The notes under the pieces: model-generated
The model's database searches: none
What the model saw: only the letters and a program-made list of their open reading frames with translations
What the model was told of the DNA's origin: nothing
Assembly (NCBI RefSeq): GCF_040783975.1
Contig: NZ_CP160631.1
Span: 744,001-808,000, forward strand
DNA from: Pantoea sp. Ep11b
GTDB taxonomy: Bacteria; Pseudomonadota; Gammaproteobacteria; Enterobacterales; Enterobacteriaceae
Length of the DNA stretch: 64,000 nt
Direction: 5' to 3'
Program-made: the position numbers and the translations under genes
In this document: positions 34,581 to 51,893 of the stretch, in pieces
Layout: each line of letters starts with the position of its first letter
How positions within the stretch are numbered: position 1 is the stretch's first letter

Positions 34581-35738
34581 TCAGGCCCCGGTTTTTCCCA
34601 GGTTGGCGTCAAATGTTTGCCAGCTTTCACGCATGTCCACAACGCTGCGGGTTTTGCGTGCCTCATCGATTTTGATGGCAGTGAGGCCCGCTTCCAGCGC
34701 GTCCACCACTGACACTTTCAGCGGTGTTCCCTGTTTAATATGTTTGACAATTTCTGCGGCCATCAGCGCATCCGCGCCGTAATGGCCATCATAGGCGTTG
34801 CCGCTGTAGGCGGTATCCACCTCTTTTGCGCCGGTGCGGGCATTGTGTACGCGGAAGTAGTTGCGGACAAAGTCGCCCTCCGCCATGCCGCTGGTGCCCA
34901 TCACACAAAAACGGCGGAACTCATCCGGCACGTTCAGGTTGGCGTGGAAGGCAAGCGTCGCACCGCCTTCGTATTCGATCAGGGCGGTCTGGTAATCCAC
35001 AATGTCGGCATCGCTGTCGAACACCGCATCGGTACTGGACCAGCCGCTGGGCTTCTCATGATAGATGGCGGAATCAGGCGTGACAGCGCCCTGCGGAGCA
35101 TGAGCGGGCGTAAAGGATTTGCGACCGCCAAAGCTGGCGACGCGGGTCGGACGCTGCTGCAGCAGGCCCTGATAGAGATCGATGTCGTGGCAGCACTTTT
35201 CCAGAATATAGGGGCCGGCATACTTCTCCAGGCGCCGCCAGTCGCGCTGGAAGAAGGCACCGTGATAAGGCTTGATGTGCTCTGTCGCCTCAATAGAGGT
35301 GATCTCGCCCAGTTGTCCGGCGTCGCGCGCCGCCAGCAGGTCGTGATAGAGCGGTGAATAGCGCAGCACCAGACCGACCAGGATGCGAGCCTCGCCATAC
35401 TCGCGCACCAGCTTCGCCATCGCCATCGTCTGCTCTTCATTGATCACCACCGGCTTTTCGGTAAAGACCGTATAACCCGCCGCCAGCGCCTGACCCACAT
35501 GCTCCAGATGCAGAAAGTTGGGTGAACCTACCAGCACCACATCCATTCCACCCTGTTTCAGCAGATCATCAATGGAGTCAAAGGCCTGACCGGGTGCGAT
35601 ACCAAAACTGTGCAGATTAGGCAGTCCGGCGGGAGCCGGATCGTAATACCCCACCACCGAGAAGGCGTCGTCGGCCCTGCTGAACTCTTTGATTACGTGG
35701 GACAGACGAAAGCCAAGACCGATAATGCCTACTTTCAT
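34581..35738 (-). CDS. Gfo/Idh/MocA-family sugar dehydrogenase
   Basis: NAD(P)-dependent oxidoreductase of 385 residues. ATG at 35738 is chosen because CAGGGG sits before it and the protein then begins MKVGIIGLGFRLSHV, the Rossmann GxGxxx fold; an upstream frame extension has no ribosome-binding site. The family EKP motif appears as FTEKPVVINEE (about 94-104), and EKCCHDIDLYQGLL (about 187-200) holds the conserved catalytic-type HDID. It is divergent from a BadF-type kinase, at the edge of a carbohydrate locus, so it likely oxidises or epimerises a sugar from that pathway. Substrate unknown. Confidence 0.82.
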   Translation of the reverse strand: MKVGIIGLGFRLSHVIKEFSRADDAFSVVGYYDPAPAGLPNLHSFGIAPGQAFDSIDDLLKQGGMDVVLVGSPNFLHLEHVGQALAAGYTVFTEKPVVINEEQTMAMAKLVREYGEARILVGLVLRYSPLYHDLLAARDAGQLGEITSIEATEHIKPYHGAFFQRDWRRLEKYAGPYILEKCCHDIDLYQGLLQQRPTRVASFGGRKSFTPAHAPQGAVTPDSAIYHEKPSGWSSTDAVFDSDADIVDYQTALIEYEGGATLAFHANLNVPDEFRRFCVMGTSGMAEGDFVRNYFRVHNARTGAKEVDTAYSGNAYDGHYGADALMAAEIVKHIKQGTPLKVSVVDALEAGLTAIKIDEARKTRSVVDMRESWQTFDANLGKTGA

Positions 35739-36008
35739 GATAAACCCCTGCTTCTGAAATCGGATGATGTCTGGCCTGCCGGTAAGCGGCGTGGCTGTTG
35801 ATAATCTGACCATCAACTTATTACGACAGAAAAAGTAATGTCAATAACGCGCTGCGCGTTTTGCGAGAGGGTTTTTTGTTATAGCGATGTAAAATAAGGG
35901 AAAGTTGACAATATCTTTTTGCCATATTTATTTGTGATTGCGATTTAAGTTTTTTTATCCTATCGTTCGCTCACTATGGCTATAACCCTTACTCCGGGAA
36001 GGAATCGC

Positions 36009-36893
36009 GTGCAACCACACTATCTTCTTGGCATTGATGGCGGCGGTACACAGTGTCGCGCGCGGTTAACCGATCGGCAGGGGCGTCTGCTGGCCGAAGC
36101 CACGGGCGGTCCTGCCAACGTCTGGTCAGCCTATGACGCGGCGCTGAGCTGCGTTGATCAGCTGATCGACCTCGTTTTCTTACAGGCGGGATTAACCGCA
36201 GAGGCGCTGGCGCAGACCGCGCTGGTCGCCGGCTTAGCCGGAGCCAACGTCGCCTCGGTGCAGGCACGGCTTGCCAGCTGGCAGCCCGCCTGCGCGGCGT
36301 TACAGGTTGTCAGCGATGTGGAGATCGCCTGTGCAGGCGCCCACGCGGGCGCGCCTGGCGCCGTCTTTATCATCGGCACCGGCAGCCAGGGGGCCGCCTG
36401 GGATGGCGAACGCTTTACGCTGCTTGGCGGCTGGGGCTTTGCCCTGTCGGATCAGGGGTCGGGCGCGGAGCTGGGCCGTCGTGCGCTGCGTCTGGCGCTG
36501 CTAGCCCACGAGTCCATTGTTCCGCCTGGCGCACTGACCCGGCAACTGATGGCGCAGTTTGACCACAGCCCGGAAACCATGCTGCTCTGGACGCGCTCCG
36601 CCACGCCTGCGGACTGGGCGCGCGTGGTGCCGCAGATCTTTGCGGCCGCCGACGCGGGCGATCGCCATGCCCAGGAGCTGCTGCAGCAGACCGCCGCCGA
36701 TATCGGCCTGATGGTTCGCCGTCTGACCGCCCTGAGCAGCGGACCAGTGGCCCTGATGGGCGGGCTCGCCACCCCGATCCAGCCCTGGCTGGATGAGGCC
36801 GTTCAGGCCCGGCTGGTGACGCCTCAGGGTGATGCCCTGAGCGGCGCGCTGATCCTGGCCCGGCAGCTGACACCTGCCCGATTAACGATCTGA
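36009..36893 (+). CDS. BadF/BadG-type kinase, glucosamine kinase-like
   Basis: A sugar kinase of the ASKHA fold, 294 residues from GTG at 36009, which has GGGAAGGA 6 nt upstream; an ATG at 35976 lacks one. The phosphate 1 loop LLGIDGGGTQCRARLTD is at 6-22, the phosphate 2 loop FIIGTGSQGAAW near 118-129 and an adenosine-type VALMGGLATP near the end. Length and motifs match GspK-type glucosamine kinases and GlcNAc kinases of this family. The neighbouring ROK regulator, 40 bp downstream on the same strand, suggests amino-sugar metabolism, but this is inference. Confidence 0.78.
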   Translation: MQPHYLLGIDGGGTQCRARLTDRQGRLLAEATGGPANVWSAYDAALSCVDQLIDLVFLQAGLTAEALAQTALVAGLAGANVASVQARLASWQPACAALQVVSDVEIACAGAHAGAPGAVFIIGTGSQGAAWDGERFTLLGGWGFALSDQGSGAELGRRALRLALLAHESIVPPGALTRQLMAQFDHSPETMLLWTRSATPADWARVVPQIFAAADAGDRHAQELLQQTAADIGLMVRRLTALSSGPVALMGGLATPIQPWLDEAVQARLVTPQGDALSGALILARQLTPARLTI

Positions 36894-36933
36894 CGCTGGC
36901 TTACTCCGTTCAGCCCGCTAACCCGAGGAATTT

Positions 36934-38052
36934 ATGACCGCTCCCAACGTAACCGCGCGCATTCTGCGGTTGATTGTTGAAAATGCGCCGATCAGCCAGT
37001 CGGACCTGAAAGTTCGCAGCGGACTGAGCATGTCAACCGTGTCTCAGGCGACGAATCGCCTGCTGGCGCAGGAGATTGTGCAGGAGCTGGGGTTACGCCG
37101 CGTCTCGATGGGACGGCCAAAGACGCTGCTGGGGCTCAATGCCGATCGCGCCAGCGTGATTGGTATTCAGCTCAATGCCGAACGTAACCTGATCGTGATG
37201 ACCGACCTCAGCGGCAACCTGCTGGGCGAGCAGCAGATGCCAAAAGGAACGCTGACGCCACGTCAGCTTGGCGATGCACTGGCAAAGTTTCTGCGCGGTG
37301 TGGAGGAGAAGCGGGTTGGTGCAATCGGCCTCGCCCTGTCGGGCCTGGTCGACGCCGACAATGGCTACTGCATCCGTTCCAAGGTGCTCGGCTGGGACAA
37401 CGTGCCGATTGCGCGCCTGCTGGAAGCGCGTTTCTCTCTGCCGGTCTTTATCGAAAACGATGCCAACGCGATGGCGATGGCGGCGATGGTTTTTGGTCAG
37501 CTCGGCAACGCGCAGTCGGCGGTGATCGCCACCTACGGCAAAGGTATCGGGGCAGGGATCATTCTTAACCGTCAGCTCTATCGCGGGCGTCACGGCAAGG
37601 CGGGGGAGATTGGCAACGGGCTGGTGGCGGACGGTTCGCTGCGGCTGCTGGAGGATGTCGCCTCGTCGCGGGCTATTCTGCAACGCCTTGCGGAGCAGGA
37701 GCCGGATGAGGGCGTCACGCTACAGGCGCTGGACCAGCGGCCCACACCCGCAGTGCTGGCGGCGCTGGAAGAGGCCGGGCGCGAGCTGGGGATTTCGCTG
37801 GCGAACCTCTCTGTGGCCTACGATCCGGATGTGGTTTATCTGGCGATGGAGCCGCACATGGCGTCGCGCATCCTGCTCGATCACATCACCCAGAGTTTCC
37901 AGGCCTACCGGCTGAAACTGACGCCGCACATGACGCCGTTGCAGTTCCTGACAGAATCGAACCGGATGTGGGCGCTGGGCGCGGCAGGCTTTGCCGTTAA
38001 CCGGCTGCTGGATCTGCTGGCGGCGCAGGCCGATGAAGAACCCGTCACCTGA
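36934..38052 (+). CDS. ROK-family transcriptional regulator
   Basis: A 372-residue NagC/XylR-type repressor. The N-terminal winged helix covers about 1-70 (ILRLIVENAPISQSDLKVRS, then GLSMSTVSQATNRLL); the rest is the ROK sugar-kinase-like domain with VGAIGLALSGLVD and IENDANAMAMA. The zinc cluster CxCGxxGC(x)E normally following the GEIG motif is absent: the sequence reads GKAGEIGNGLVADGSLRLLED. It may therefore sense its sugar without that cluster. It probably cotranscribes with the kinase and controls the divergent transport genes. Confidence 0.85.
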   Translation: MTAPNVTARILRLIVENAPISQSDLKVRSGLSMSTVSQATNRLLAQEIVQELGLRRVSMGRPKTLLGLNADRASVIGIQLNAERNLIVMTDLSGNLLGEQQMPKGTLTPRQLGDALAKFLRGVEEKRVGAIGLALSGLVDADNGYCIRSKVLGWDNVPIARLLEARFSLPVFIENDANAMAMAAMVFGQLGNAQSAVIATYGKGIGAGIILNRQLYRGRHGKAGEIGNGLVADGSLRLLEDVASSRAILQRLAEQEPDEGVTLQALDQRPTPAVLAALEEAGRELGISLANLSVAYDPDVVYLAMEPHMASRILLDHITQSFQAYRLKLTPHMTPLQFLTESNRMWALGAAGFAVNRLLDLLAAQADEEPVT

Positions 38053-38066
38053 ATCCCCCTCCCAAT

Positions 38067-38094
38067 AAAAACGGGCGCCGCGGCGCCCGTTTTT
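38067..38094. terminator. Bidirectional terminator between ROK and ABC ATPase genes
   Basis: The 28-bp perfect palindrome has arms AAAAACGGGCGCC / GGCGCCCGTTTTT, giving A and T tracts on both strands, placed exactly between convergent genes. Confidence 0.93.
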
Positions 38095-38109
38095 GTTTCC
38101 GCGTTGTCC

Positions 38110-39201
38110 TTAACGCAGGCGCATTCCCTGCTCATCAAACAGCAGGCAGTGCGCGGCGGAAAAGCCCAGTTCAACCTGAGTGCCCAGATCGCGCGCTGTC
38201 GCCTCGCGCTCCTCCACCACCAGCATCTGCTCACGTCCGATATCCAGATAGAGATAGTTGGTGTGGCCCAGCATCTCGCCATAGGCCAGCTCACCGCAGA
38301 AGTGCACGGCATCCGGCGTGCGGGCGGCAGGCTGGAAGTGCTCGGGACGAATGCCCAGCGTCACGGTCTGCCCTTCGTGGCAAGCGGCGGCGATGTTCAG
38401 GGTCAGCGCCTCAATTTTCAGCGCCGGCACCCGCAGCTGCACCTTACCCGCGCCCGTGGCGCTGATCTCTGCCCGCAGGAAGTTCATCTTAGGCGAGCCG
38501 ATAAAACCGGCGACAAACAGGTTATCCGGGTCGTGATAGAGCGCCAGCGGCGCGCCAACCTGCTCGATGCGGCCCTGGCGCAGCACCACGATGCGGTCAG
38601 CCAGCGTCATCGCCTCCAGCTGATCGTGCGTCACATAGATCATGGTGTTGCCGAGCGAGGCGTGCAGGCGGGCGATCTCAATCCGCATCTGCAAACGCAG
38701 TTCGGCATCCAGGTTAGAGAGCGGTTCATCGAACAGGAAAATCCGGGGGTGACGGATGATCGCCCGGCCAATCGCCACACGCTGCCGCTGTCCGCCTGAC
38801 AGCGCGCGCGGCAGACGATCAAGCAGTTCGGTGAGGTGCAGGCGGGCGGCGGTCTGCTCAATCGCGCGGTTGATCTCCGCTTTCGGCTTCTTCATCACCT
38901 CCAGCGGATAGGCCAGGTTGCCGCGCACCGTCATGTTGGGGTAGAGCGCATAGGACTGGAACACCATGGCGATGCCACGTTCGGTGGCGGGCTGCTGCGT
39001 CATATCCTGTTCATCAATCAGCAACTGCCCGCTGCTGATCTCCTCCAGCCCGGCGATCATCCGCAGCAGCGTGGATTTGCCACAGCCGGATGGCCCGACA
39101 AACACCACAAATTCGCCGCTGTTAATCGTCAGATCGATGCCATGAATGACATTCACATGTTCATAGGACTTCTTCACATTCTGCAGGCGCAGGCTGGTCA
39201 T
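38110..39201 (-). CDS. MalK/UgpC-type ABC transporter ATPase
   Basis: Energises sugar import by the permeases at 41.7-43.4 kb. Its 363 residues include Walker [19 protein letters not shown] at 35-52, the signature [14 protein letters not shown] near 134-147, Walker [15 protein letters not shown] near 153-166, and the C-terminal TOBE-type regulatory domain typical of the CUT1 family. It is transcribed after the GNAT gene on the minus strand, away from the permeases, but has no other transporter partner here. Confidence 0.9.
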
Positions 39202-39213
39202 CGGCTACCTCAC

Positions 39214-39813
39214 TCAGAGTAACTGGCCCATGTAGATGGCATTGCTGCGCAGGATCGGGGTGAACCCCATGCGCTGATAAAAGGCACAGACCTGCTCATT
39301 CTGCAGGCTGACCCCCAGATGAACGCCGGTCACACCGGCGGCACGCAGCGCCGCCAGTTCATGCTCAATCATCCGTCGCCCCCATCCCCCTTTCTGAGCC
39401 GCGGGCAGCAGGTTGATATGCAGATGAGCCGGCCACTGCGTCACCAGATTGTCTGCGGCCTGGTCGGGATGGCGGATGGCGTCAAGAATTTTGCCGTCGA
39501 GCGGGGCGCTGGCGTGGCGGTCGCGATATTTCGCCTGCAGCGCCGGCCACCATTCGGCCGCCAGCCGGGCTTCAAACGCGCGGGTATCGGGCACCGCGAC
39601 CACATAACCCTGCACCTCACCCTCCCGCTCCAGCACAAAGGCAAAGTCCGGCGCAAATCGTGCGTAGGGCACGGCAAAACGCTGGCCGGGGTAGTCGGGA
39701 TCGGAGTAGAGCGCACGGGCATCGCCGCCCGCATCGGCTGTTTCCAGGCAGATGCGGTAGAGCGCCGGAAAGTCCGCCGGTGTGGCCGGACGGATGACAC
39801 CTTGATTCGCCAT
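39214..39813 (-). CDS. GNAT-family protein resembling the O-GlcNAcase acetyltransferase-like domain
   Basis: A 199-residue GNAT protein. It begins GVIRPATPADFPALYRICLE, then carries ALYSDPDYPGQRFAVPYARF, FVLEREGEVQGYVVAVPDT and EWWPALQAKY, features I associate with bacterial homologues of the C-terminal acetyltransferase-like domain of eukaryotic O-GlcNAcase. The acetyl-CoA loop reads KGGWGRRMIEHEL, close to the usual Q/RxxGxG/A pattern, so cofactor binding is plausible. It precedes the ABC ATPase by 12 bp in the same unit. Amino-sugar acetylation would fit the context but is unproven. Confidence 0.75.
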   Translation of the reverse strand: MANQGVIRPATPADFPALYRICLETADAGGDARALYSDPDYPGQRFAVPYARFAPDFAFVLEREGEVQGYVVAVPDTRAFEARLAAEWWPALQAKYRDRHASAPLDGKILDAIRHPDQAADNLVTQWPAHLHINLLPAAQKGGWGRRMIEHELAALRAAGVTGVHLGVSLQNEQVCAFYQRMGFTPILRSNAIYMGQLL

Positions 39814-40363
39814 GGTGAATTCTCGTGAGTGAGTGAACCGGTCAGAGCGTGAACCGCTTCGCAGGTGAAAGTTACGTTAATAAAAGCGGACTTAGTTTTC
39901 AAGATAGAATAATTACCTTATCGCACTAACCCGGCCGGTTCGGCAATATTTACCGGCATCAGGATGCACAACTGTGATCGCCAGCACGCCCGTAACAGGG
40001 CGTCTGGCAGCCGTTTCACAGCCAGCGAAAAGAGAAAAGTGTGAGCGTGATAGGATTTTCATATGTTTTATCAGGATGTTATTTTGCGATTATCGCGCAG
40101 GCATCTTCTGTGGGATAAGCGGCAGGTGGCGGAATACCGCACCGGCTGATGCGCGCAGACGCAGCGCGGCGTGCTGAATTTTCTGCTCTTTTGTTGTTTA
40201 TTTGCGCGTGCTCACAGCGTTGCAATTCCCCGCGCGGGCTGTTTGACTTTATTTTTTTATTAAAGTAAGTATGAGTGAGTGCGTTTGTGTGCGGCTGCAG
40301 CCTGCAGGATGTCAGGCGGTGAGATGAAGGGATGCCGATCCTGGTCTGAAGAAGGTGAGCATA
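39814..40363. other. Divergent regulatory region of the sugar ABC locus
   Basis: This 550-bp spacer separates the GNAT-ATPase unit from the solute-binding protein. The central part is AT-rich (for example 40245-40270) and is the likely promoter zone; a CCGGCCGG palindrome lies near 39930. I see no credible gene, RNA or definite ROK operator. Confidence 0.45.
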
Positions 40364-41695
40364 ATGTCTGTTTCCTCCGTTCGTTCGTTCCGAATTCGCA
40401 ATGTGGGTCGGCTGCTGGCAGCGAGCCTGCTGGCGGGCAGCGTCTCGCATGTCGCCCACGCCGCCGTAACCCTGAATGAGTGGGATATCTATAACTATCC
40501 GCAGCAGACGGCCGCAGTGGATGAAGGGATTAAGGAATTTTCGCAGCAGAATCCTGGCATCGTGATTAATCGCTCGGTTCACTCTTTCGAAGATACCCGT
40601 ATTCCGCTCAAACTGGCGCTGACCGCCGGTGATGGCCCGCAGATCGCTCAGGTTAACCAGGGCGGTGGCGATATGGGCTCGCTGGTGAAAGATAAGCTGC
40701 TGCTGCCGCTGGACAGTTACGCCACCAGCAACGGCTGGACCCACCGTTTCCCGGACTCGATTCTGAAGCGTAACCGCTGGTCAGACAGCGGCGAGTTTGG
40801 CAGCGGTAAGCTTTACGGCATCGCCAGCCTGGGCGAAATGGTGGGGCTCTATTACAACAAAGCATTGCTGGACAAGGCGGGTATCGCGGTGCCGAAAACG
40901 CTGGCCGAGCTGGAGAGCGCCATGGCGAAGCTGAAACAGCAGGGCACCGCCCCGATGATGCTGGGCCTGCTCGATGGCAATATGGGCCAGCAGCTGCTCA
41001 GTACGCTGTGGCAGGCGCAGATTGAGAGCCGCGACCGCAAGACGCTGGACAACCTGATTTACGATGTGGGTGGCACCTTCAAAGAGAGCAAACTGGTGAA
41101 TGCCGCCACCATGATGAAGAGCTGGACCGACAAAGGCTACTTCTTCCCGGGCTTCCAGGGCATCGGCCACGACGATGCGGCAACCCTGTTCCAGAACGGC
41201 CAGGCGGCCTTCCTGGTCAGCGGCACCTGGTATCTTGGCCAGTTTAAAGACAACAAAGATATTCACTTCGCCGCGATGCCTGCCGGTGAGGGTGTGAAAC
41301 AACCGCTGATGGTGGGCGGAACCGATCTGGCGTTCTCTATTACCAGCACCGCCAAAAGCAGGGATCAGCAGGATGGCGCGGCGAAGTTCATCAACTATAT
41401 GGTTTCCGATGCGATGGCGGATCGCTGGCTGAAGGTCGGTTTCCTGCCCGCCAGCACCAACAAAGCGGCCAGAATGCCTGCGGATAATCCGCTGCTGGCG
41501 GAGGCGTATCAGGTCTGGCTGACGCTGAACGACTACGACGGTTTAGGCCACTATGTAGACTGGGCGACACCGACCATGAACGCCGAACTGAACCAGAATG
41601 TCCAGCTGCTGCTGGCAGGCCGTCTGACCGCCGATCAGATGGTCGTCAACTTTGATAACAACTATCAGCGTTACCTGAAAACCCTGAAGCATTAA
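40364..41695 (+). CDS. Extracellular sugar-binding protein of ABC transporter
   Basis: Periplasmic receptor of the CUT1 type, 443 residues. ATG at 40364 has GAAGG 8 nt upstream. A long signal peptide (about 1-34, ending [10 protein letters not shown]) is followed by a two-lobed binding fold: ITLNEW-like start, then [39 protein letters not shown] and [20 protein letters not shown], which match family 1 solute-binding proteins. It heads an operon with two permeases and a GH28 enzyme. Ligand unknown; context suggests an oligosaccharide. Confidence 0.88.
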
Positions 41696-41700
41696 GCCGG

Positions 41701-41723
41701 AGGCCCGGCAGACCGCCGGGCCT
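41701..41723 (+). repeat. Intercistronic hairpin after the binding-protein gene
   Basis: The perfect 9-bp stem AGGCCCGGC / GCCGGGCCT with a 5-nt loop lies between the binding-protein and first permease genes, with no T-tract. Such hairpins protect the upstream message and raise binding-protein yield over permease, as known for malE-malF. Confidence 0.6.
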
Positions 41724-41752
41724 GAGCATCGTTCCGAACCACGGGTAAGGTT

Positions 41753-42625
41753 ATGTTGAATTTAAGCGGCTGGCGTAATTTTCTCTATGTTCTGCCTGCG
41801 GTGCTGGTGTATGCGGTGTTTCTGCTGTTCCCGCTGCTGGCCTCGCTGGGCATCAGTTTTACTGAATGGGATGGCACCTCGCTGCCGGTGTTCAGCGGCC
41901 TCAGCAACTATCTGCGGATGTTCAGCGATCCGGTGTTCTGGATCGCGCTGGGTAACAACGCCCTCCTGATGCTGTTCTACACCCTGCTGCCGATTGGCGT
42001 CGGCCTGCTGCTCTGCAGCTTTCTGTATGAGACGCGCAACAACAGCGAACGCAGCGTGCTGCGCATTCTCTTTTTCCTGCCCTATATCATGCCGATGGCG
42101 GTGCTGGGCGTGGTGTGGCGCTGGCTTTATAACCCCGCGTTCGGGCCGATCGATCAGATCCTCCGCGCAATAGGATTGCCGCAGCTGGCGCTCTCCTGGC
42201 TGGGCGATTTTACCTGGGCGCTGCCTGCGGTGGGGCTGGTCGCGACCTGGTACTTCTTCGGCTTCTGTCTGGTGCTGTTTATGGCGGGCCTGCAGCGCAT
42301 GGATCCCTCGCTGCTGGAAGCCGCCGACCTGGATGGCTCATCGCGTCGCCAGAAGTTTATGCGGATTACGCTGCCCGGCCTGCGGCCTGAACTGCGGATT
42401 GCGCTGCTGCTGACGGTGATCGCCAGCCTGAAAGCCTTCGACCTGGTCTATGTGATGACGCAGGGTGGGCCGGGCACCTCGACCATGGTGACCAATATCT
42501 TTATGTATAAGCAGGGTTTTGACCTGCACTACTTTGGCTACGCCTCGTCGGTGGCGGTGTTCAGCATGGTCATTGTTTTAGGCATTAACTATCTGATCCA
42601 TCTGGCCTTAAAGGAGCGTTACTGA
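41753..42625 (+). CDS. Sugar ABC permease, MalF type
   Basis: First inner-membrane permease of the CUT1 importer, 290 residues, six predicted helices. The ATPase-docking EAA loop reads EAADLDGSSRRQKFMRITLP (about 189-208). The start region NFLYVLPAVLVYAVFLLFPL is a typical first helix. It overlaps the next permease by one base (TGATG). Follows the binding protein after a stabilising hairpin. Confidence 0.92.
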   Translation: MLNLSGWRNFLYVLPAVLVYAVFLLFPLLASLGISFTEWDGTSLPVFSGLSNYLRMFSDPVFWIALGNNALLMLFYTLLPIGVGLLLCSFLYETRNNSERSVLRILFFLPYIMPMAVLGVVWRWLYNPAFGPIDQILRAIGLPQLALSWLGDFTWALPAVGLVATWYFFGFCLVLFMAGLQRMDPSLLEAADLDGSSRRQKFMRITLPGLRPELRIALLLTVIASLKAFDLVYVMTQGGPGTSTMVTNIFMYKQGFDLHYFGYASSVAVFSMVIVLGINYLIHLALKERY

Positions 42626-43440
42626 TGCGAAGCACGCCGATCATTTCACGCGCGCTGATCTGGATTGTGGCGCTGATGACGATTCTGCCGTTTCTGATGG
42701 CGCTGATGACCTCGTTTAAAACCCAGATGGAGCTGTTTCAGGGGGTCTTCACGCTGCCCGCCTCGCTGAATTTTAAAAACTATCTGACCGCGTGGCAGCA
42801 GGGACATTTTAACGTCTACTTCCTCAACTCGGTGCTGGTGGTGATCCCGGTGGTGCTGTTCAGCGTGCTGCTGGGGATCCTGGCCGGATTCGGTTTTGCC
42901 TGGCTGAAGATCCCGGGGAAAAAAGTGATTGCTGCGATGCTGGCGCTGGGGATGGTGCTGCCGAGTGAAGCCTTTATCATTCCGCTCTATCACGAACTGC
43001 GCTGGATGGGGCTGACCAACACCTATCTGGCGCTGATCCTGCCGCAGATTGCGCTGTCGCTGCCCTTTACCACGCTGATGATCGCCAGTGCGTTTCAGCA
43101 GGTGCCCAAAGAGTTGGTGGAAGCGGCGGTCATGGATGGGGCATCGCGGGTCAAAATCCTGTGGGGCATTCTGGTGCCTGCCATCTGGCCGACCCTGTCG
43201 ACCCTGGGACTGCTGCTGTTTATCTGGACCTGGAACGAGTTCCTGATCCCGCTGATTCTGGTCAATAAAGATGAGCTGCGCACGCTGCCGATTGGCATGA
43301 TGTTTTTCCAGAACAAAAACACCATCGACATTCCGGTGCTGATGGCGGGCGCGATGATTGTGATTATGCCGCTGATCGCGGTGTTCCTGATTTTCCAGCG
43401 CAAATTTATCAGCGGCGTCACCGAAGGTGCCGTGAAGTAA
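42625..43440 (+). CDS. Sugar ABC permease, MalG type
   Basis: Second permease, 271 residues and six predicted helices. The EAA loop reads EAAVMDGASRVKILWGILVP (about 168-187). Translationally coupled to the preceding permease by a one-base overlap and about 100 bp before the GH28 gene. The ATPase serving both permeases is most likely the one at 38.1-39.2 kb. Confidence 0.92.
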   Translation: MRSTPIISRALIWIVALMTILPFLMALMTSFKTQMELFQGVFTLPASLNFKNYLTAWQQGHFNVYFLNSVLVVIPVVLFSVLLGILAGFGFAWLKIPGKKVIAAMLALGMVLPSEAFIIPLYHELRWMGLTNTYLALILPQIALSLPFTTLMIASAFQQVPKELVEAAVMDGASRVKILWGILVPAIWPTLSTLGLLLFIWTWNEFLIPLILVNKDELRTLPIGMMFFQNKNTIDIPVLMAGAMIVIMPLIAVFLIFQRKFISGVTEGAVK

Positions 43441-43539
43441 TCTGTGACAGCCCGCACAAAACGGCGCACTGGCGGCCAGACAAAGGTTTGCTGCGCCGCT
43501 GTGTGCTGCAATTTCTCCTCCTCAACCTGCGGGAGACGC

Positions 43540-44874
43540 ATGATGCACCTTTCCCTTGCTGATTTTCATCCGGCCGCCGATGGCGAAACTGCCGACACCG
43601 ACGTGCTGCAGCGCGCCCTGGATCAGATTGCTGCTGCGGGTGGCGGGCGTCTGGCCGTGCCAGCCGGTCGCTATCGCACCGGTTGCCTGACGCTGCCCTC
43701 TGATTTTGAGCTGCACCTGGAAGCCGGAGCAGAGCTGATCGCCAGTCACCGGCTGTCGGACTATCAGGCCGTGCAGACGCTAAGCTATGCGGAGAAGTCC
43801 CACAACGTGCTGCTCTATGCGCTGGGCCAGCGCAATATCACCATCAGCGGCACCGGACGCATTGATGGTGATGGTGAAGCCTGGTTCGCCGCTGAGCGTG
43901 ATGAGCAGGGCTATCGCCTGCCGCGCGTCGACCGGCCACGAATGATCGTGTTTGAGGATTGCGAACAGGTGACGCTGACGGCTTTTACCATCGTGCAGGC
44001 GCCGATGTGGACGGTGCATCTGGTGAGCTGCCGCCATGTGCATATCGACCATCTCACGATCGACAACAGCATGACCATGCCCAACACCGATGCGCTGGAT
44101 ATCGATAGCTGCGAGGCAGTGTTTGTGAGTAACAGCTACTTTAGCGCCGCCGATGACGCGATCTGCATTAAAACCACCTGTAAACCCGCAGCCCTGCGGC
44201 GTCCGGCCCGGCAGATTATGATCACCAACTGCCTGCTGCGCAGCTACAGCTGTGCATTTAAAATCGGCACGGAGACCTGGGACGATGTCGAAGATGTCAC
44301 CGTGACCGGCTGTACGCTGTTTGATTCCAACCGTGGCATCGGCATTCTGTCGCGCGACGGCGGGGCGATGCGACGTCTGCTGTTCAGCAATCTGACCTTT
44401 GCCTGTCACCATGCGCCGCCCTGTCACTGGGGCAAAGCCGACCCACTGCATATCTCCGTTCGCAGCCGTGATCCCGCCATCCCGCCCGGCATCGTCGAAC
44501 TGGTGCAGTTCAGTAATCTGACAGGCGTCGCGGAAGGTGCAATTAACCTGCATGCGGCACAACCGGGCTGGATACGCGATGTGGTGATTAGCCAGCTTCA
44601 GATGCGGCAGACGGTGTCGCCGATGACTCAGGGGCAGTATGACATTCGCCCGCCCTGTAACCCGGATGCCCCGACCGGCATGGGTCTGGACAACGCCTAT
44701 AAACTGGATCCGACAACCGGCGAAGCCTTTGGCGTGGAACCCTATCCCGGCGGGTTGCCTGGCCTGTTCGCGCGTGGCGTGGAGAATCTGCAACTGCACC
44801 ACCTGACGATCAACAGGCCAGCGCCGTTACCGGCAGGCTGGCATCCCGATCCGGTGGTGCAGCTACCGGCGTGA
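43540..44874 (+). CDS. Glycoside hydrolase family 28-like enzyme, cytoplasmic
   Basis: A right-handed beta-helix protein of 444 residues from ATG at 43540 with GGGAG 5 nt upstream; no signal peptide. GH28 landmarks NTDALDIDSC (about 185-194) and AADDAICIKT (about 205-214) keep three aspartates equivalent to the polygalacturonase NTD and DD pairs. The usual GHG motif is replaced by CAFKIGTETW and RIK by RGIGILSRDGG, a pattern I associate with a broad bacterial GH28 subgroup rather than pectin-cleaving enzymes. Cotranscribed with the ABC importer, it probably cuts the imported oligosaccharide inside the cell. Bond specificity unknown. Confidence 0.8.
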   Translation: MMHLSLADFHPAADGETADTDVLQRALDQIAAAGGGRLAVPAGRYRTGCLTLPSDFELHLEAGAELIASHRLSDYQAVQTLSYAEKSHNVLLYALGQRNITISGTGRIDGDGEAWFAAERDEQGYRLPRVDRPRMIVFEDCEQVTLTAFTIVQAPMWTVHLVSCRHVHIDHLTIDNSMTMPNTDALDIDSCEAVFVSNSYFSAADDAICIKTTCKPAALRRPARQIMITNCLLRSYSCAFKIGTETWDDVEDVTVTGCTLFDSNRGIGILSRDGGAMRRLLFSNLTFACHHAPPCHWGKADPLHISVRSRDPAIPPGIVELVQFSNLTGVAEGAINLHAAQPGWIRDVVISQLQMRQTVSPMTQGQYDIRPPCNPDAPTGMGLDNAYKLDPTTGEAFGVEPYPGGLPGLFARGVENLQLHHLTINRPAPLPAGWHPDPVVQLPA

Positions 44875-49648: not shown

Positions 49649-50527
49649 TTACAGCAGTTCGCGCTCAATCCGTTCGCGGGTTTCGATAGCCTGAACCTTC
49701 ATTTTTTCCGGGTAGCCAAACAGAGAGGTGGCGATAATCGATTCACCGCCCACTTTATGTGTCCGGGTGGCAAAGCCGGTGTCGCGCAGCGTTTTAAACA
49801 GGGTGTCGAAGTCCACTTCGCCTTCACCGACGCCAACGTGCTGGTGAATGGTGGCATCCACTCCCGGCGGGTTAACGATGTAGCGACAGTGTCTGGTGTG
49901 ATTCATGGTGTCGGCGATCAGTACGTGGGAGAGATCGTCTCCGGCATACTCCAGCATCGGCTTCACATCGCCTTTACCTTTGTCATAAAAGAAGGTGTGA
50001 GGGGTGCTGTAAACATATTTGACGTTGTCGCTGCGGAACGATTTGACGATATCGACCGTTTCGTTGTTCTCTTCGCAAAAATCCCAGGGGTGAGCCTGGA
50101 TTTCGACGCGGATGCCTTCACGTTCGATGATTGGCAGCAGCTCCTCCATCGAGCGATAGAACATCTCTTCGCAGATTTCCGGCTCGTTTGGCGTGCCGGA
50201 GAGTTCGGTGTTGATCACTGGCACCCCCATCTCAACCGCGATCTCAATCATCCGCTTCCAGTTTTTTACCGCCGCCTGACGGCGCAGCTCATCCGGGCCG
50301 GACCAGCGATAGACGACGATAAACGAAGAGACCGCCAGCCCGGTGGCGCGCAGGGCATTTTTATACTCAGTGATGATTTCACGGCTGGCTTTAGGGTGCT
50401 TATAAAAGGGGTTGATCTGTGGATGCGGTGACTGTTCGATATATTTGTATCCCCACTCCGCCACCTGATGAACCATTCGGGTGATGCCCATATCTTTAAT
50501 CACATCCACATCAAAAGCGATTTTCAT
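49649..50527 (-). CDS. Sugar-phosphate isomerase/epimerase, IolH-like
   Basis: A 292-residue TIM-barrel protein of the xylose isomerase-like superfamily. The sequence MKIAFDVDVIKDMGITRMV and YKYIEQSPHPQINPFYKHP closely follows enterobacterial IolH of the myo-inositol cluster. Metal-ligand type residues appear in NTELSG, VEIQAHPWDF and DTMNHTRH. No other iol genes are in the window, so inositol degradation is not supported here; this may be a stand-alone paralogue. Divergent from a LacI regulator, which probably controls it. Confidence 0.82.
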   Translation of the reverse strand: MKIAFDVDVIKDMGITRMVHQVAEWGYKYIEQSPHPQINPFYKHPKASREIITEYKNALRATGLAVSSFIVVYRWSGPDELRRQAAVKNWKRMIEIAVEMGVPVINTELSGTPNEPEICEEMFYRSMEELLPIIEREGIRVEIQAHPWDFCEENNETVDIVKSFRSDNVKYVYSTPHTFFYDKGKGDVKPMLEYAGDDLSHVLIADTMNHTRHCRYIVNPPGVDATIHQHVGVGEGEVDFDTLFKTLRDTGFATRTHKVGGESIIATSLFGYPEKMKVQAIETRERIERELL

Positions 50528-50867
50528 CTTTCTGCTCCGGCGTTACTAAAGGGCTGTTGTTCATGGCCGACCGCATCAGGCTGCTGCGAGCTTAACGGCG
50601 CGGCGGACGGAGCGGGTCAGCAAGCCGGCCCGCTTCTGCCGCCGGACACGCTCTGGAATCGGGCCGGCAGCAGGATTTTCCCCTGTTTTATCAAATGAAC
50701 GTTTTAAAAGGAATGAAGATAGAAATGAATGTTTCATTCTGAGAGGAGCGTCAAGGTTGTCGCATTTTTTCTATCAAAAAAATGAGAGGATTTTCCGGGC
50801 CACGTTAGAGTGAGAGGCGCAAAACCCGCAGAACAGGTCGTTTTCAATCCGAAAGAAGAGGGGCAGG
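50528..50867. promoter_or_regulatory. Divergent region with two candidate LacI-type operators
   Basis: The 340-bp spacer between the iolH-like and LacI genes contains AATGAA-TGT-TTCATT at 50724-50738, a perfect 6-bp inverted repeat, and a second CG-centred site AAATGAACGTTTTAAA at 50693-50708. LacI-family operators are typically of the TGAAACGTTTCA type. The two lie about 30 bp apart. The rest holds nothing recognisable. Confidence 0.5.
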
Positions 50868-51893
50868 ATGGCAAAAGTAACGATGATCGCCATAGCACAG
50901 GCGGCGGGTGTAGGCGTAGCCACCGTAGACCGGGTGCTTAACCGTCGTGCGCCGGTGCGTAGCGTGACCACGCAGAAGGTGCTGAGTGCGGCCCGTGAGC
51001 TGGGCTACCGTCTGCCGGATGCGCATAGCCAGGCAATGGCATCGTTCGCTGCGGCCCCGATTCGCGTGAGTTTCATCCTGCTGCCTGCCCGTTACTCCTG
51101 TTACCAGCAACTGGGCGAGGCACTGAAACAGCAGCTTAAGATGCAGCAGCCCGCAGGCAATGAACCCGAATTCTGCTGGCATGATATTCATGAGGTGGAG
51201 GCAGTGGCGCGATCGTTACGTCAGCTGGCACAACGCAGCGAGGTGATTGCGCTGGTGGCACTGGATCATCCGCTGATTCGGCACGCTGTCCGCGACGTGT
51301 CGCGGCTGGGCGTGCGGGTCTACGCGCTGTTCTCCGACTTCTCGCCCTGTGAACATGCCGGTTTTATCGGCATCGATAACCAGAAAGCGGGCCGGACGGC
51401 GGCCTGGATGGCGCAGCATCTGCTTCGACAGCCGGGATCGGTCGGCGTGCTGCTCGGCGATCATCGCTTTACCTGTCAGGAGCGCAGCGAAATCAGTTTT
51501 CGATCCTGCCTGCGTGAAGCGGGCGTCAGCCAGCGGGTGCTGGAGCCGCTGAAAACGCATGAGTCCGCAGAAGGGGGCTATCAGGCGGCCCGGCAGTTGC
51601 TGGAGACACATAGGGATCTGGTGATGATTTATGCGCCCTGCGGCGGTATTGAAGGCGTGGTGCAGGCGCTGCGCGAGAGTGGCCGCCCCCGGATTGATCT
51701 GCTGTGCCACGGTCCGCTGCCGGGCGATGACCTGGCGCTGATTGACGGCACCATTACGCTGATGCTGCGCAACCGAATTGATGCGCTGGCCGCGGCTGCG
51801 ATCGCAACATGCCTCAGCAGTCCGGCAGATCAGCATGATCATTTTGCTCAGGTCACGGTGCCGTTCGATATCGTCACGCGTGAAAACCTGTAG
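50868..51893 (+). CDS. LacI-family regulator
   Basis: A 341-residue repressor. The helix-turn-helix MIAIAQAAGVGVATVDRVLN is at 6-25, followed by a hinge near 45-60; the periplasmic-binding-like effector domain follows, with FIGIDNQKAGRTAAWMAQHL near 162-181 and GSVGVLLGDHRFTCQER. It shares the non-standard VGVATVDRVLNRR of inositol- and ribose-type regulators. Divergent from an iolH-like gene, its likely target; inducer unknown. Confidence 0.85.
   Translation: MAKVTMIAIAQAAGVGVATVDRVLNRRAPVRSVTTQKVLSAARELGYRLPDAHSQAMASFAAAPIRVSFILLPARYSCYQQLGEALKQQLKMQQPAGNEPEFCWHDIHEVEAVARSLRQLAQRSEVIALVALDHPLIRHAVRDVSRLGVRVYALFSDFSPCEHAGFIGIDNQKAGRTAAWMAQHLLRQPGSVGVLLGDHRFTCQERSEISFRSCLREAGVSQRVLEPLKTHESAEGGYQAARQLLETHRDLVMIYAPCGGIEGVVQALRESGRPRIDLLCHGPLPGDDLALIDGTITLMLRNRIDALAAAAIATCLSSPADQHDHFAQVTVPFDIVTRENL

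What the first reader, a model, noticed from the sequence alone, without database searches (positions are those of the whole stretch)
34581..44874. Unassigned oligosaccharide uptake and breakdown locus
A complete CUT1 importer (binding protein, two permeases, ATPase) is combined with a cytoplasmic GH28-like enzyme, a BadF/GspK-type kinase, a ROK regulator, a Gfo/Idh/MocA dehydrogenase and a GNAT protein. The kinase, ROK and GNAT members point to an amino sugar, whereas GH28 enzymes act on galacturonan- or rhamnose-type plant polymers. I know of no described pathway with this exact set, so the imported sugar may be a mixed glycan. Seen: gene order and motifs. Inferred: a single pathway.
Basis: partly seen in the sequence, partly recalled or inferred. 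Interest (0 to 1): 0.7.

Follow-up and report, generated by a model that had tools for sequence, protein, structure and literature searches.

The report
Amino-sugar oligosaccharide import locus with O-GlcNAcase relative
A conserved bacterial gene set that most likely takes up and breaks down a glucosamine-containing sugar chain; one of its enzymes is a relative of the tail domain of the human enzyme O-GlcNAcase, and its gene company suggests that this domain began as a glucosamine acetylating enzyme.

Summary
The nine genes are real and stand as described. They are one conserved unit: all nine, same order and strands, are found at 21 of 23 Pantoea(-like) loci (the other two are cut by contig ends) and in another family of the order (G186). 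Eight of them, without GH28, stand in the same order on a Duffyella plasmid, and rearranged beside nagB on a Falsirhodobacter plasmid. The core is therefore most likely an amino-sugar route; GH28 is a variable glycosidase. (1) The GNAT protein belongs to the bacterial family solved as model of the pseudo-acetyltransferase domain of human O-GlcNAcase; it keeps the acetyl-CoA loop and catalytic histidine, and relatives often lie in sugar loci, twice next to GH84. (2) The Gfo/Idh protein is nearest to NAD+-dependent sulfoquinovosidases (GH188) but lacks their sulfonate-binding residues. My reading: GlcN-terminated chains are imported, N-acetylated, cut, phosphorylated by the BadF-type kinase and fed to NagA/NagB. 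A possible plant substrate is the GlcN(Ac)-GlcA-inositol head of GIPC sphingolipids; this is inference. No activity was tested.

The parts
34581..35738 (-). Gfo/Idh/MocA protein, nearest to NAD+-dependent glycoside hydrolases (GH188); candidate NAD+-dependent glycosidase or dehydrogenase of the imported sugar
   Evidence: Pfam; PDB sequence; model and fold comparison; EKCCH in 28 of 28 aligned relatives
35739..35975 (.). divergent Gfo|BadF intergenic region; sigma70-like promoter for Gfo at 35816-35844 (-) with conserved blocks
   Evidence: alignment of 14 sequences; position; promoter reading by eye
35976..36893 (+). BadF-type sugar kinase, likely GlcNAc kinase
   Evidence: PF01869; NagK_SO3507 215.5 bits (cut-off 370); 1zc6 E 1.5e-39
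36934..38052 (+). ROK repressor with winged helix, likely local regulator
   Evidence: Pfam; NagC model 105.5 bits (cut-off 650)
38110..39201 (-). MalK-type ATPase of the CUT1 importer
   Evidence: Pfam, NCBIfam
39214..39813 (-). GNAT acetyltransferase of the OgpAT / O-GlcNAcase C-terminal-domain family; proposed GlcN N-acetyltransferase
   Evidence: PDB 3zj0 E 5e-38, 4bmh 6e-33, human OGA about 9e-12; catalytic His and P-loop in 16 of 16 rows
39814..40363 (.). divergent GNAT|SBP intergenic region; inverted repeat ACTTTA-N9-TAAAGT at 40246-40266 inside the likely SBP promoter, candidate ROK operator
   Evidence: operator role inferred
40364..41695 (+). CUT1 solute-binding protein
   Evidence: Pfam; nearest PDB 4g68 (named only ABC transporter), then chito-oligosaccharide-binding NagB1/NagB2; NgcE model 62.3 bits (cut-off 399.65)
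41753..42625 (+). CUT1 permease 1
   Evidence: Pfam
42625..43440 (+). CUT1 permease 2
   Evidence: Pfam
43537..44874 (+). GH28-family glycosidase without signal peptide (by eye), accessory and variable member
   Evidence: PF00295; PglB model 420.7 bits (cut-off 600); alignments; not in the Duffyella stretch

Best explanation
The locus is a ROK-controlled uptake and breakdown unit for an oligosaccharide that contains glucosamine or N-acetylglucosamine. The CUT1 importer brings it into the cytoplasm. The GNAT protein N-acetylates a free-amino GlcN residue, so that the chain or the sugar can enter the GlcNAc route. Cytoplasmic glycosidases that vary with lineage (GH28 here; GH84, GH20 or an alpha/alpha-toroid-like protein elsewhere) and possibly the GH188-like Gfo protein (transient C3 oxidation with NAD+) cut the chain. 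The BadF-type kinase phosphorylates GlcNAc, and NagA (elsewhere in this genome) and NagB (not searched here) finish the job. Shown: gene content, conservation, families, kept active-site residues, gene company. Inferred: substrate, order of steps, every enzyme activity, the ROK protein's target.
For: Nine-gene synteny at 21 of 23 Pantoea(-like) loci and, in the same order, in G186, another family of the order, at 51-75% identity. Eight-gene core without GH28, same order, on a Duffyella plasmid. In Falsirhodobacter SBP-permease-permease-Gfo-ATPase-BadF-ROK-DMT-GNAT-nagB-amidohydrolase (the Gfo match lies in two halves at the two ends of the circular record). BadF kinase nearest to NagK. nagA present in the own genome. 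GNAT family: of 26 loci outside the window's genus 17 have a sugar-catabolic marker within 6 kb and 9 have that plus CUT1 parts, against 0 of 20 control stretches; in the 17 loci whose contents I had not looked at when the markers were written, 11 and 5. Next to GNAT: GH84 in L087 and L123, NagK-like BadF in L087, nagA, ROK kinase and SIS in L126. Gfo: of 13 distant loci 11 have CUT1 parts alongside (no control run). Gfo nearest to GH188 by sequence and structure, with Lys107, Glu189 and His193 equivalents kept.
Against: 9 of 26 GNAT loci have no marker, and 7 of the 17 positives rest on a single ROK match of 26-29% identity; without these seven it is 10 of 26. The CUT1 matches at L087, L116 and L123 are weak (25-37%). 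Two plasmid relatives of GNAT (Mesorhizobium, Streptomyces) have no sugar genes around. No equivalog cut-off is reached for kinase, ROK, SBP or GH28. The Gfo protein lacks the Tyr136 equivalent of SqgA, so a plain dehydrogenase remains possible; some Gfo relatives sit beside an importer without amino-sugar genes that I could see (L040, L057), and two have no importer match (L067, L068). A common operator in both intergenic regions was not established: 3 of 200 shuffles reached the best score. The SBP's best PDB hit is not an amino-sugar binder by name. The Falsirhodobacter amidohydrolase was not tested as NagA.
Confidence: 0.62

Rival explanations
1. Plant-lipid variant: the imported sugar is the head group of plant glycosyl inositol phosphoryl ceramides, GlcN(Ac)-GlcA-inositol. 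GNAT acetylates GlcN, the Gfo protein or another enzyme removes GlcNAc, GH28 cuts the uronic acid from inositol, and the iol pathway takes the inositol.
For: It explains amino sugar, acetyltransferase, a uronic-acid type glycosidase and plant-linked hosts together. Tomato GIPC heads carry GlcNAc, and inositol phosphate glycans are released in infected leaves (passages of PMC11496612). The own genome has iolB. In Agrobacterium and Microvirga the ROK-Gfo-GNAT set lies next to an inositol-monophosphatase-family gene and another importer type, which would suit a phosphorylated head group. The Gfo loop that replaces the sulfonate pocket keeps an invariant His159 and Arg165, so an acidic group is not excluded.
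Against: No alpha-glucuronidase activity is known to me for GH28 (recall). Duffyella and Falsirhodobacter lack GH28 in the stretches seen; relatives in family f73 sit with GH84 or GH20, which fits chitin-type sugars. Inositol monophosphatase-family proteins have many substrates (recall); the Microvirga one scores 177.5 bits against a cut-off of 332 for inositol-1-monophosphatase. iolB is far away (C1:167257).
Confidence: 0.18
2. Chitin/chitosan-oligosaccharide route: partly deacetylated chito-oligosaccharides are imported, re-acetylated by GNAT and cut by the glycosidase at hand; GH28 is a bystander added in some lineages.
For: Relatives in family f73 with GH20 (L066), a NagA-like protein (222.5 bits, cut-off 225.65) and a NagK-like ROK kinase (209.8 bits, cut-off 380; both L062), or GH84 and a BadF NagK-like kinase (L087); NagB1/NagB2 among the nearest SBP structures.
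Against: GH28 is present in all 23 Pantoea(-like) loci and in the same unit in two f69 genomes; no beta-hexosaminidase lies in the window locus.
Confidence: 0.3
3. Pectin-type route: the unit takes up galacturonan or rhamnogalacturonan pieces, and kinase, ROK and GNAT are incidental.
For: GH28 nearest to PglB and then to PglA and Bacteroides rhamnogalacturonidases.
Against: The core persists without GH28; nagB joins it in Falsirhodobacter; the Lelliottia GH28 relative goes with another transporter (my reading). No uronate-catabolic gene among the nine.
Confidence: 0.1

Closest known systems
OgpAT (Oceanicola granulosus, 3zj0) and SsAT (4bmh), bacterial relatives of the human O-GlcNAcase C-terminal domain
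   Same: Sequence family (E 5e-38 and 6e-33), catalytic His135 and CoA loop kept; OgpAT lies directly downstream of a GH84 (PMC3814719), and a relative stands next to GH84 in L087 and L123
   Different: Their substrate was not known (passages); here the family stands in an import and kinase unit, with GH28 instead of GH84
GH188 NAD+-dependent sulfoquinovosidases (SqgA)
   Different: Sulfonate residues Arg166 and Lys172 and Tyr136 not kept; no sulfoquinovose genes among the nine
NagK of the BadF type (NagK_SO3507; 1zc6)
   Same: Best NCBIfam and PDB matches of the kinase
   Different: 215.5 bits against an equivalog cut-off of 370
Agrobacterium PglB-type GH28
   Same: Nearly whole-length match, 420.7 bits; catalytic aspartates kept
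   Different: Below the cut-off of 600; conserved His of galacturonases replaced
Chito-oligosaccharide importers (NgcE type; NagB1/NagB2)
   Same: CUT1 architecture; SBP matches
   Different: Low scores; specificity not transferable

Membership tests
OgpAT / O-GlcNAcase C-terminal acetyltransferase family | Sequence homology to 3zj0, 4bmh and the human OGA domain well above other GNATs | tested here: met
   5e-38, 6e-33, about 9e-12; best other GNAT 9e-5
OgpAT / O-GlcNAcase C-terminal acetyltransferase family | Catalytic His135 and acetyl-CoA P-loop of the active bacterial members | tested here: met
   HxH and [QR]xxGxG loop in 16 of 16 aligned rows (R in two; window plus 15 of the loci); numbering and PMC3814719
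OgpAT / O-GlcNAcase C-terminal acetyltransferase family | Acetyl-CoA binding and acetyl transfer | not testable with these tools
   needs protein
GH188 (NAD+-dependent sulfoquinovosidase) | Fold and sugar C3/C4 contacts Lys107, Glu189, His193 | tested here: met
   residues read by hand on the alignment
GH188 (NAD+-dependent sulfoquinovosidase) | Sulfonate-binding Arg166 and Lys172 | tested here: not met
   Ile155 and Ala161 in the alignment, a region where the model is weak (160-169 under pLDDT 50)
GH188 (NAD+-dependent sulfoquinovosidase) | Tyr136 at the sugar C2 | tested here: not met
   Leu125; VGLVLRY in 28 of 28 relatives
GH188 (NAD+-dependent sulfoquinovosidase) | His321 | not tested
   outside the printed alignment
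GH28 | Pfam domain and three catalytic aspartates | tested here: met
   NTD and DD in the alignments (which residues are catalytic: recall)
GH28 | Conserved His (HG) of galacturonases | tested here: not met
   YSCAFKIGTE replaces it (role of the His: recall)
CUT1 ABC importer | SBP, two permeases, MalK-type ATPase with OB/TOBE | tested here: met
NagK (NF046058 equivalog) | Curated score cut-off 370 | tested here: not met
   215.5 bits
NagC (NF047937 equivalog) | Curated score cut-off 650 | tested here: not met
   105.5 bits

The most novel reading that the evidence does not exclude
The bacterial family behind the pseudo-acetyltransferase domain of human O-GlcNAcase is a glucosamine N-acetyltransferase of oligosaccharide catabolism: it restores the 2-acetamido group that GH84 and GH20 enzymes need for catalysis. 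The metazoan enzyme would then be a fusion of an old GH84-GNAT catabolic pair whose second half lost acetyl-CoA binding. In Pantoea the same enzyme serves, with a GH188-like NAD+-dependent glycosidase and GH28, in use of a GlcN-uronic acid glycan such as the GIPC head group.
Probability: 0.35. Interest if true: 0.78.

Novelty: new variant of a known kind. Interest (0 to 1): 0.58.

Why it matters
[quoted passage not shown] The gene company found here gives that family a concrete, cheap-to-test substrate class. The locus also offers a second branch of NAD+-dependent glycosidase-like proteins with a changed sugar pocket, and a candidate bacterial route for plant sphingolipid head groups; the capped lists (20 of 34,765 papers; 15 of 36) showed me none.

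Tried and rejected
Sulfoquinovose as substrate: rejected, because the sulfonate residues of GH188 are not kept and none of the nine genes is a sulfoglycolysis gene. GH28 as core gene: rejected. A common ROK operator in both intergenic regions: tested on conserved columns, 3 of 200 block shuffles reached the observed best score and the top match was diffuse, so not claimed; only the inverted repeat at 40246-40266 stands out. A search with the SBP in 274 genomes of the class gave only the own genome at E <= 1e-60, no new context. E. coli genomes: no near match. Mesorhizobium and Streptomyces plasmid relatives of GNAT have no sugar genes around. An IolH-like gene and a LacI-type regulator at 49649-51893 (my reading) were looked at as an inositol link; other iol genes were not seen nearby and iolB lies at C1:167257, so dropped. 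Literature: searches (1 paper; 12 of 196 listed; 10; 1; 8 of 28 listed) showed no paper that assigns the GNAT family to amino-sugar catabolism or describes this gene set; the library holds open-licence papers only and the lists are capped.

Limits of the counts: the markers include proteins taken from L059, L062, L066, L087 and L041, so L059 and L087 match themselves. The 17 loci were fetched before the marker script was written, but their contents had not been looked at; they are therefore given apart. Some are short (L122 11.8 kb, L124 10 kb with the gene at its end). The controls are 20 stretches that I chose from 13 genomes, 12 of which bear the GNAT gene; the other GNAT-bearing genomes gave no control. 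One search was run without L042. Names such as SIS, GatZ/KbaZ, CutC, GPH transporter, CUT2 and iron-type importer in proteins not scanned with Pfam or NCBIfam are my reading of the sequence or the record's own annotation.

Full report
Observation. The window lies in a 4.03-Mb genome whose nearest relatives at this locus are Pantoea. Start sites that I used are 35738 for Gfo, 40364 for the SBP and 43537 for GH28.

Is it one unit? Of 26 loci compared with the window proteins (L001 is the window's own stretch; L002-L026 come), 23 are Pantoea or Pantoea-like (L018 is labelled Enterobacter ludwigii). In 21 of the 23 all nine genes are present in the same order and strands; L007 and L021 begin inside the unit because their contigs start there; L010, L019 and L024 have one or more genes in pieces. 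L025 (Lelliottia) and L026 (Enterobacter soli) hold only GH28 and a weak ABC-ATPase match; beside the Lelliottia GH28 stands a transporter that I read as GPH type. In a sample of 295 genomes of the order, 5 have the Gfo gene at E <= 1e-40: the own genome, three of the same genus and G186, of another family. G186 has all nine genes in the same order, 51-75% identical; Celerinatantimonas proteins show like identities to the window (72% Gfo, 59% GH28), so it may be of that genus (inference). Duffyella gerundensis carries eight genes in the same order on a plasmid, with no GH28 in the 25-kb stretch. On a Falsirhodobacter plasmid the order is SBP, permease, permease, Gfo, ATPase, BadF, ROK, DMT transporter, GNAT, nagB, amidohydrolase.

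Amino sugar. The kinase's best curated model is NagK_SO3507 (215.5 bits, cut-off 370) and its best structure a probable GlcNAc kinase (1zc6, E 1.5e-39). The SBP's matches are 4g68, the chito-oligosaccharide proteins NagB1 and NagB2, many other sugar binders and, weakly, NgcE. nagB and an amidohydrolase gene (by its place perhaps nagA, not tested) join the unit in Falsirhodobacter; nagA is elsewhere in the own genome.

The GNAT protein. Its best structures are 3zj0 (5e-38) and 4bmh (6e-33), then human O-GlcNAcase residues 716-900 (about 9e-12); the best GNAT outside this group is at 9e-5. 3zj0 is OgpAT of Oceanicola granulosus: it binds acetyl-CoA, lies directly downstream of a GH84 gene, and its function was called unknown (PMC3814719, passages and section 3.1). 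The 4bmh paper argues for a small-molecule substrate (PMC3919268, passages). Eukaryotic domains do not bind acetyl-CoA (PMC12494797, passages). The window protein keeps the histidine equivalent to OgpAT His135 and the CoA loop; both were seen in all 16 rows aligned, two rows having R for Q in the loop.

Its gene company. In 398 genomes of the phylum 12 have the gene at E <= 1e-20, three of them of the window's genus, own genome included; in 149 genomes of the family of G580 (f73) 5 (query: L087 protein); in 151 genomes of the family of G632 (f69) 17. Together these are 26 distinct loci outside the window's genus, all fetched. 17 of 26 have a sugar-catabolic marker within 6 kb and 9 of 26 have this plus CUT1 parts; 20 control stretches had none (Fisher p 1.8e-6 for any marker). 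Counting only the 17 loci whose contents I had not looked at before: 11 of 17 and 5 of 17 (p 1.4e-5 and 0.014). Seven of the 17 positives rest on one ROK match of 26-29% identity, some of them by my reading beside a CUT2-type importer; without the seven it is 10 of 26, and 6 of the 17 held-out loci. Nine loci have no marker. The clearest cases: L087 and L123, importer-GH84-GNAT, with a NagK-like BadF kinase in L087; L126, where nagA, a ROK kinase and a SIS protein lie next to it and, by my reading, Gfo in the same row; L059 and L110, with toroid-like protein, ROK kinase, GH28, GNAT, SBP, two permeases and Gfo. The L087 protein is closer still to OgpAT (2e-76) and to human O-GlcNAcase (2.8e-14).

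GH28. It scores 420.7 bits with PglB (cut-off 600) and about 130 with two rhamnogalacturonidase models. The three catalytic aspartates are kept; the histidine of galacturonases is replaced. It is present in all 23 Pantoea(-like) loci and in two f69 units, but is missing from the unit elsewhere.

Regulation. Both divergent intergenic regions have strongly conserved blocks in 14 sequences. The SBP side holds the inverted repeat ACTTTA-N9-TAAAGT at 40246-40266 within a sigma70-like promoter; the Gfo promoter lies at 35816-35844; promoters were read by eye. A shared operator was not demonstrated.

Mechanism. GH84 and GH20 enzymes use the substrate's own 2-acetamido group (GH84: passage in PMC4683255; GH20: recall). 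A free-amino GlcN end would block them, and a GlcN N-acetyltransferase beside them would clear the block, as the lysosomal heparan acetyltransferase does for its glycosidase (recall). This would explain the GH84-GNAT pair and, later, its fusion in metazoan O-GlcNAcase. For Pantoea, a plant chain with GlcN(Ac) and a uronic acid fits the GIPC head group (GlcNAc in tomato heads and release in infected leaves: PMC11496612, passages); the own genome has iolB. This last step is speculative.

Literature check. Searches (capped lists, open-licence library) showed no paper that describes this gene set or assigns the GNAT family; passages of PMC5343134 and PMC5507952 describe other GlcNAc regulons and predicted GlcNAc importers but not, in the passages seen, these two proteins.

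Noticed in passing
L087:8573-14632 and L123: In two unnamed f73 genomes a GH84 gene stands next to the GNAT gene beside importer genes, with a NagK-like BadF kinase in L087: the bacterial counterpart of the domain pair of human O-GlcNAcase, inside a sugar uptake unit.
   Followed up: partly
L032:5676-13792, L033:5587-13795: Agrobacterium and Microvirga: ROK-Gfo-GNAT next to an iron-type ABC importer and an inositol-monophosphatase-family gene, perhaps import of a phosphorylated version of the same sugar.
   Followed up: partly
L034:9225-11003, L059:1273-2991, L084, L085, L110, L113: A 570-655 aa protein (lengths of four members seen) within about 5 kb of the GNAT gene; of two members scanned, L059 has weak GH116/GDE_C matches and L034 none; the L059 member has no PDB match: possible new glycosidase family of the alpha/alpha-toroid type.
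   Followed up: partly
L019 (stink-bug symbiont contig): The locus looks decayed in an insect symbiont Pantoea: several genes match only in pieces.
   Followed up: no
L061-L066: Rows in f73 genomes with importer and Gfo and, by my reading, GntR, SIS proteins, ROK kinase and NagA (Pfam/NCBIfam run on single members only): the Gfo family's role in these GlcNAc clusters is unassigned.
   Followed up: partly
49649-50527 and 50868-51893: IolH-like isomerase and a LacI-type regulator in the window (my reading), apart from other iol genes.
   Followed up: partly
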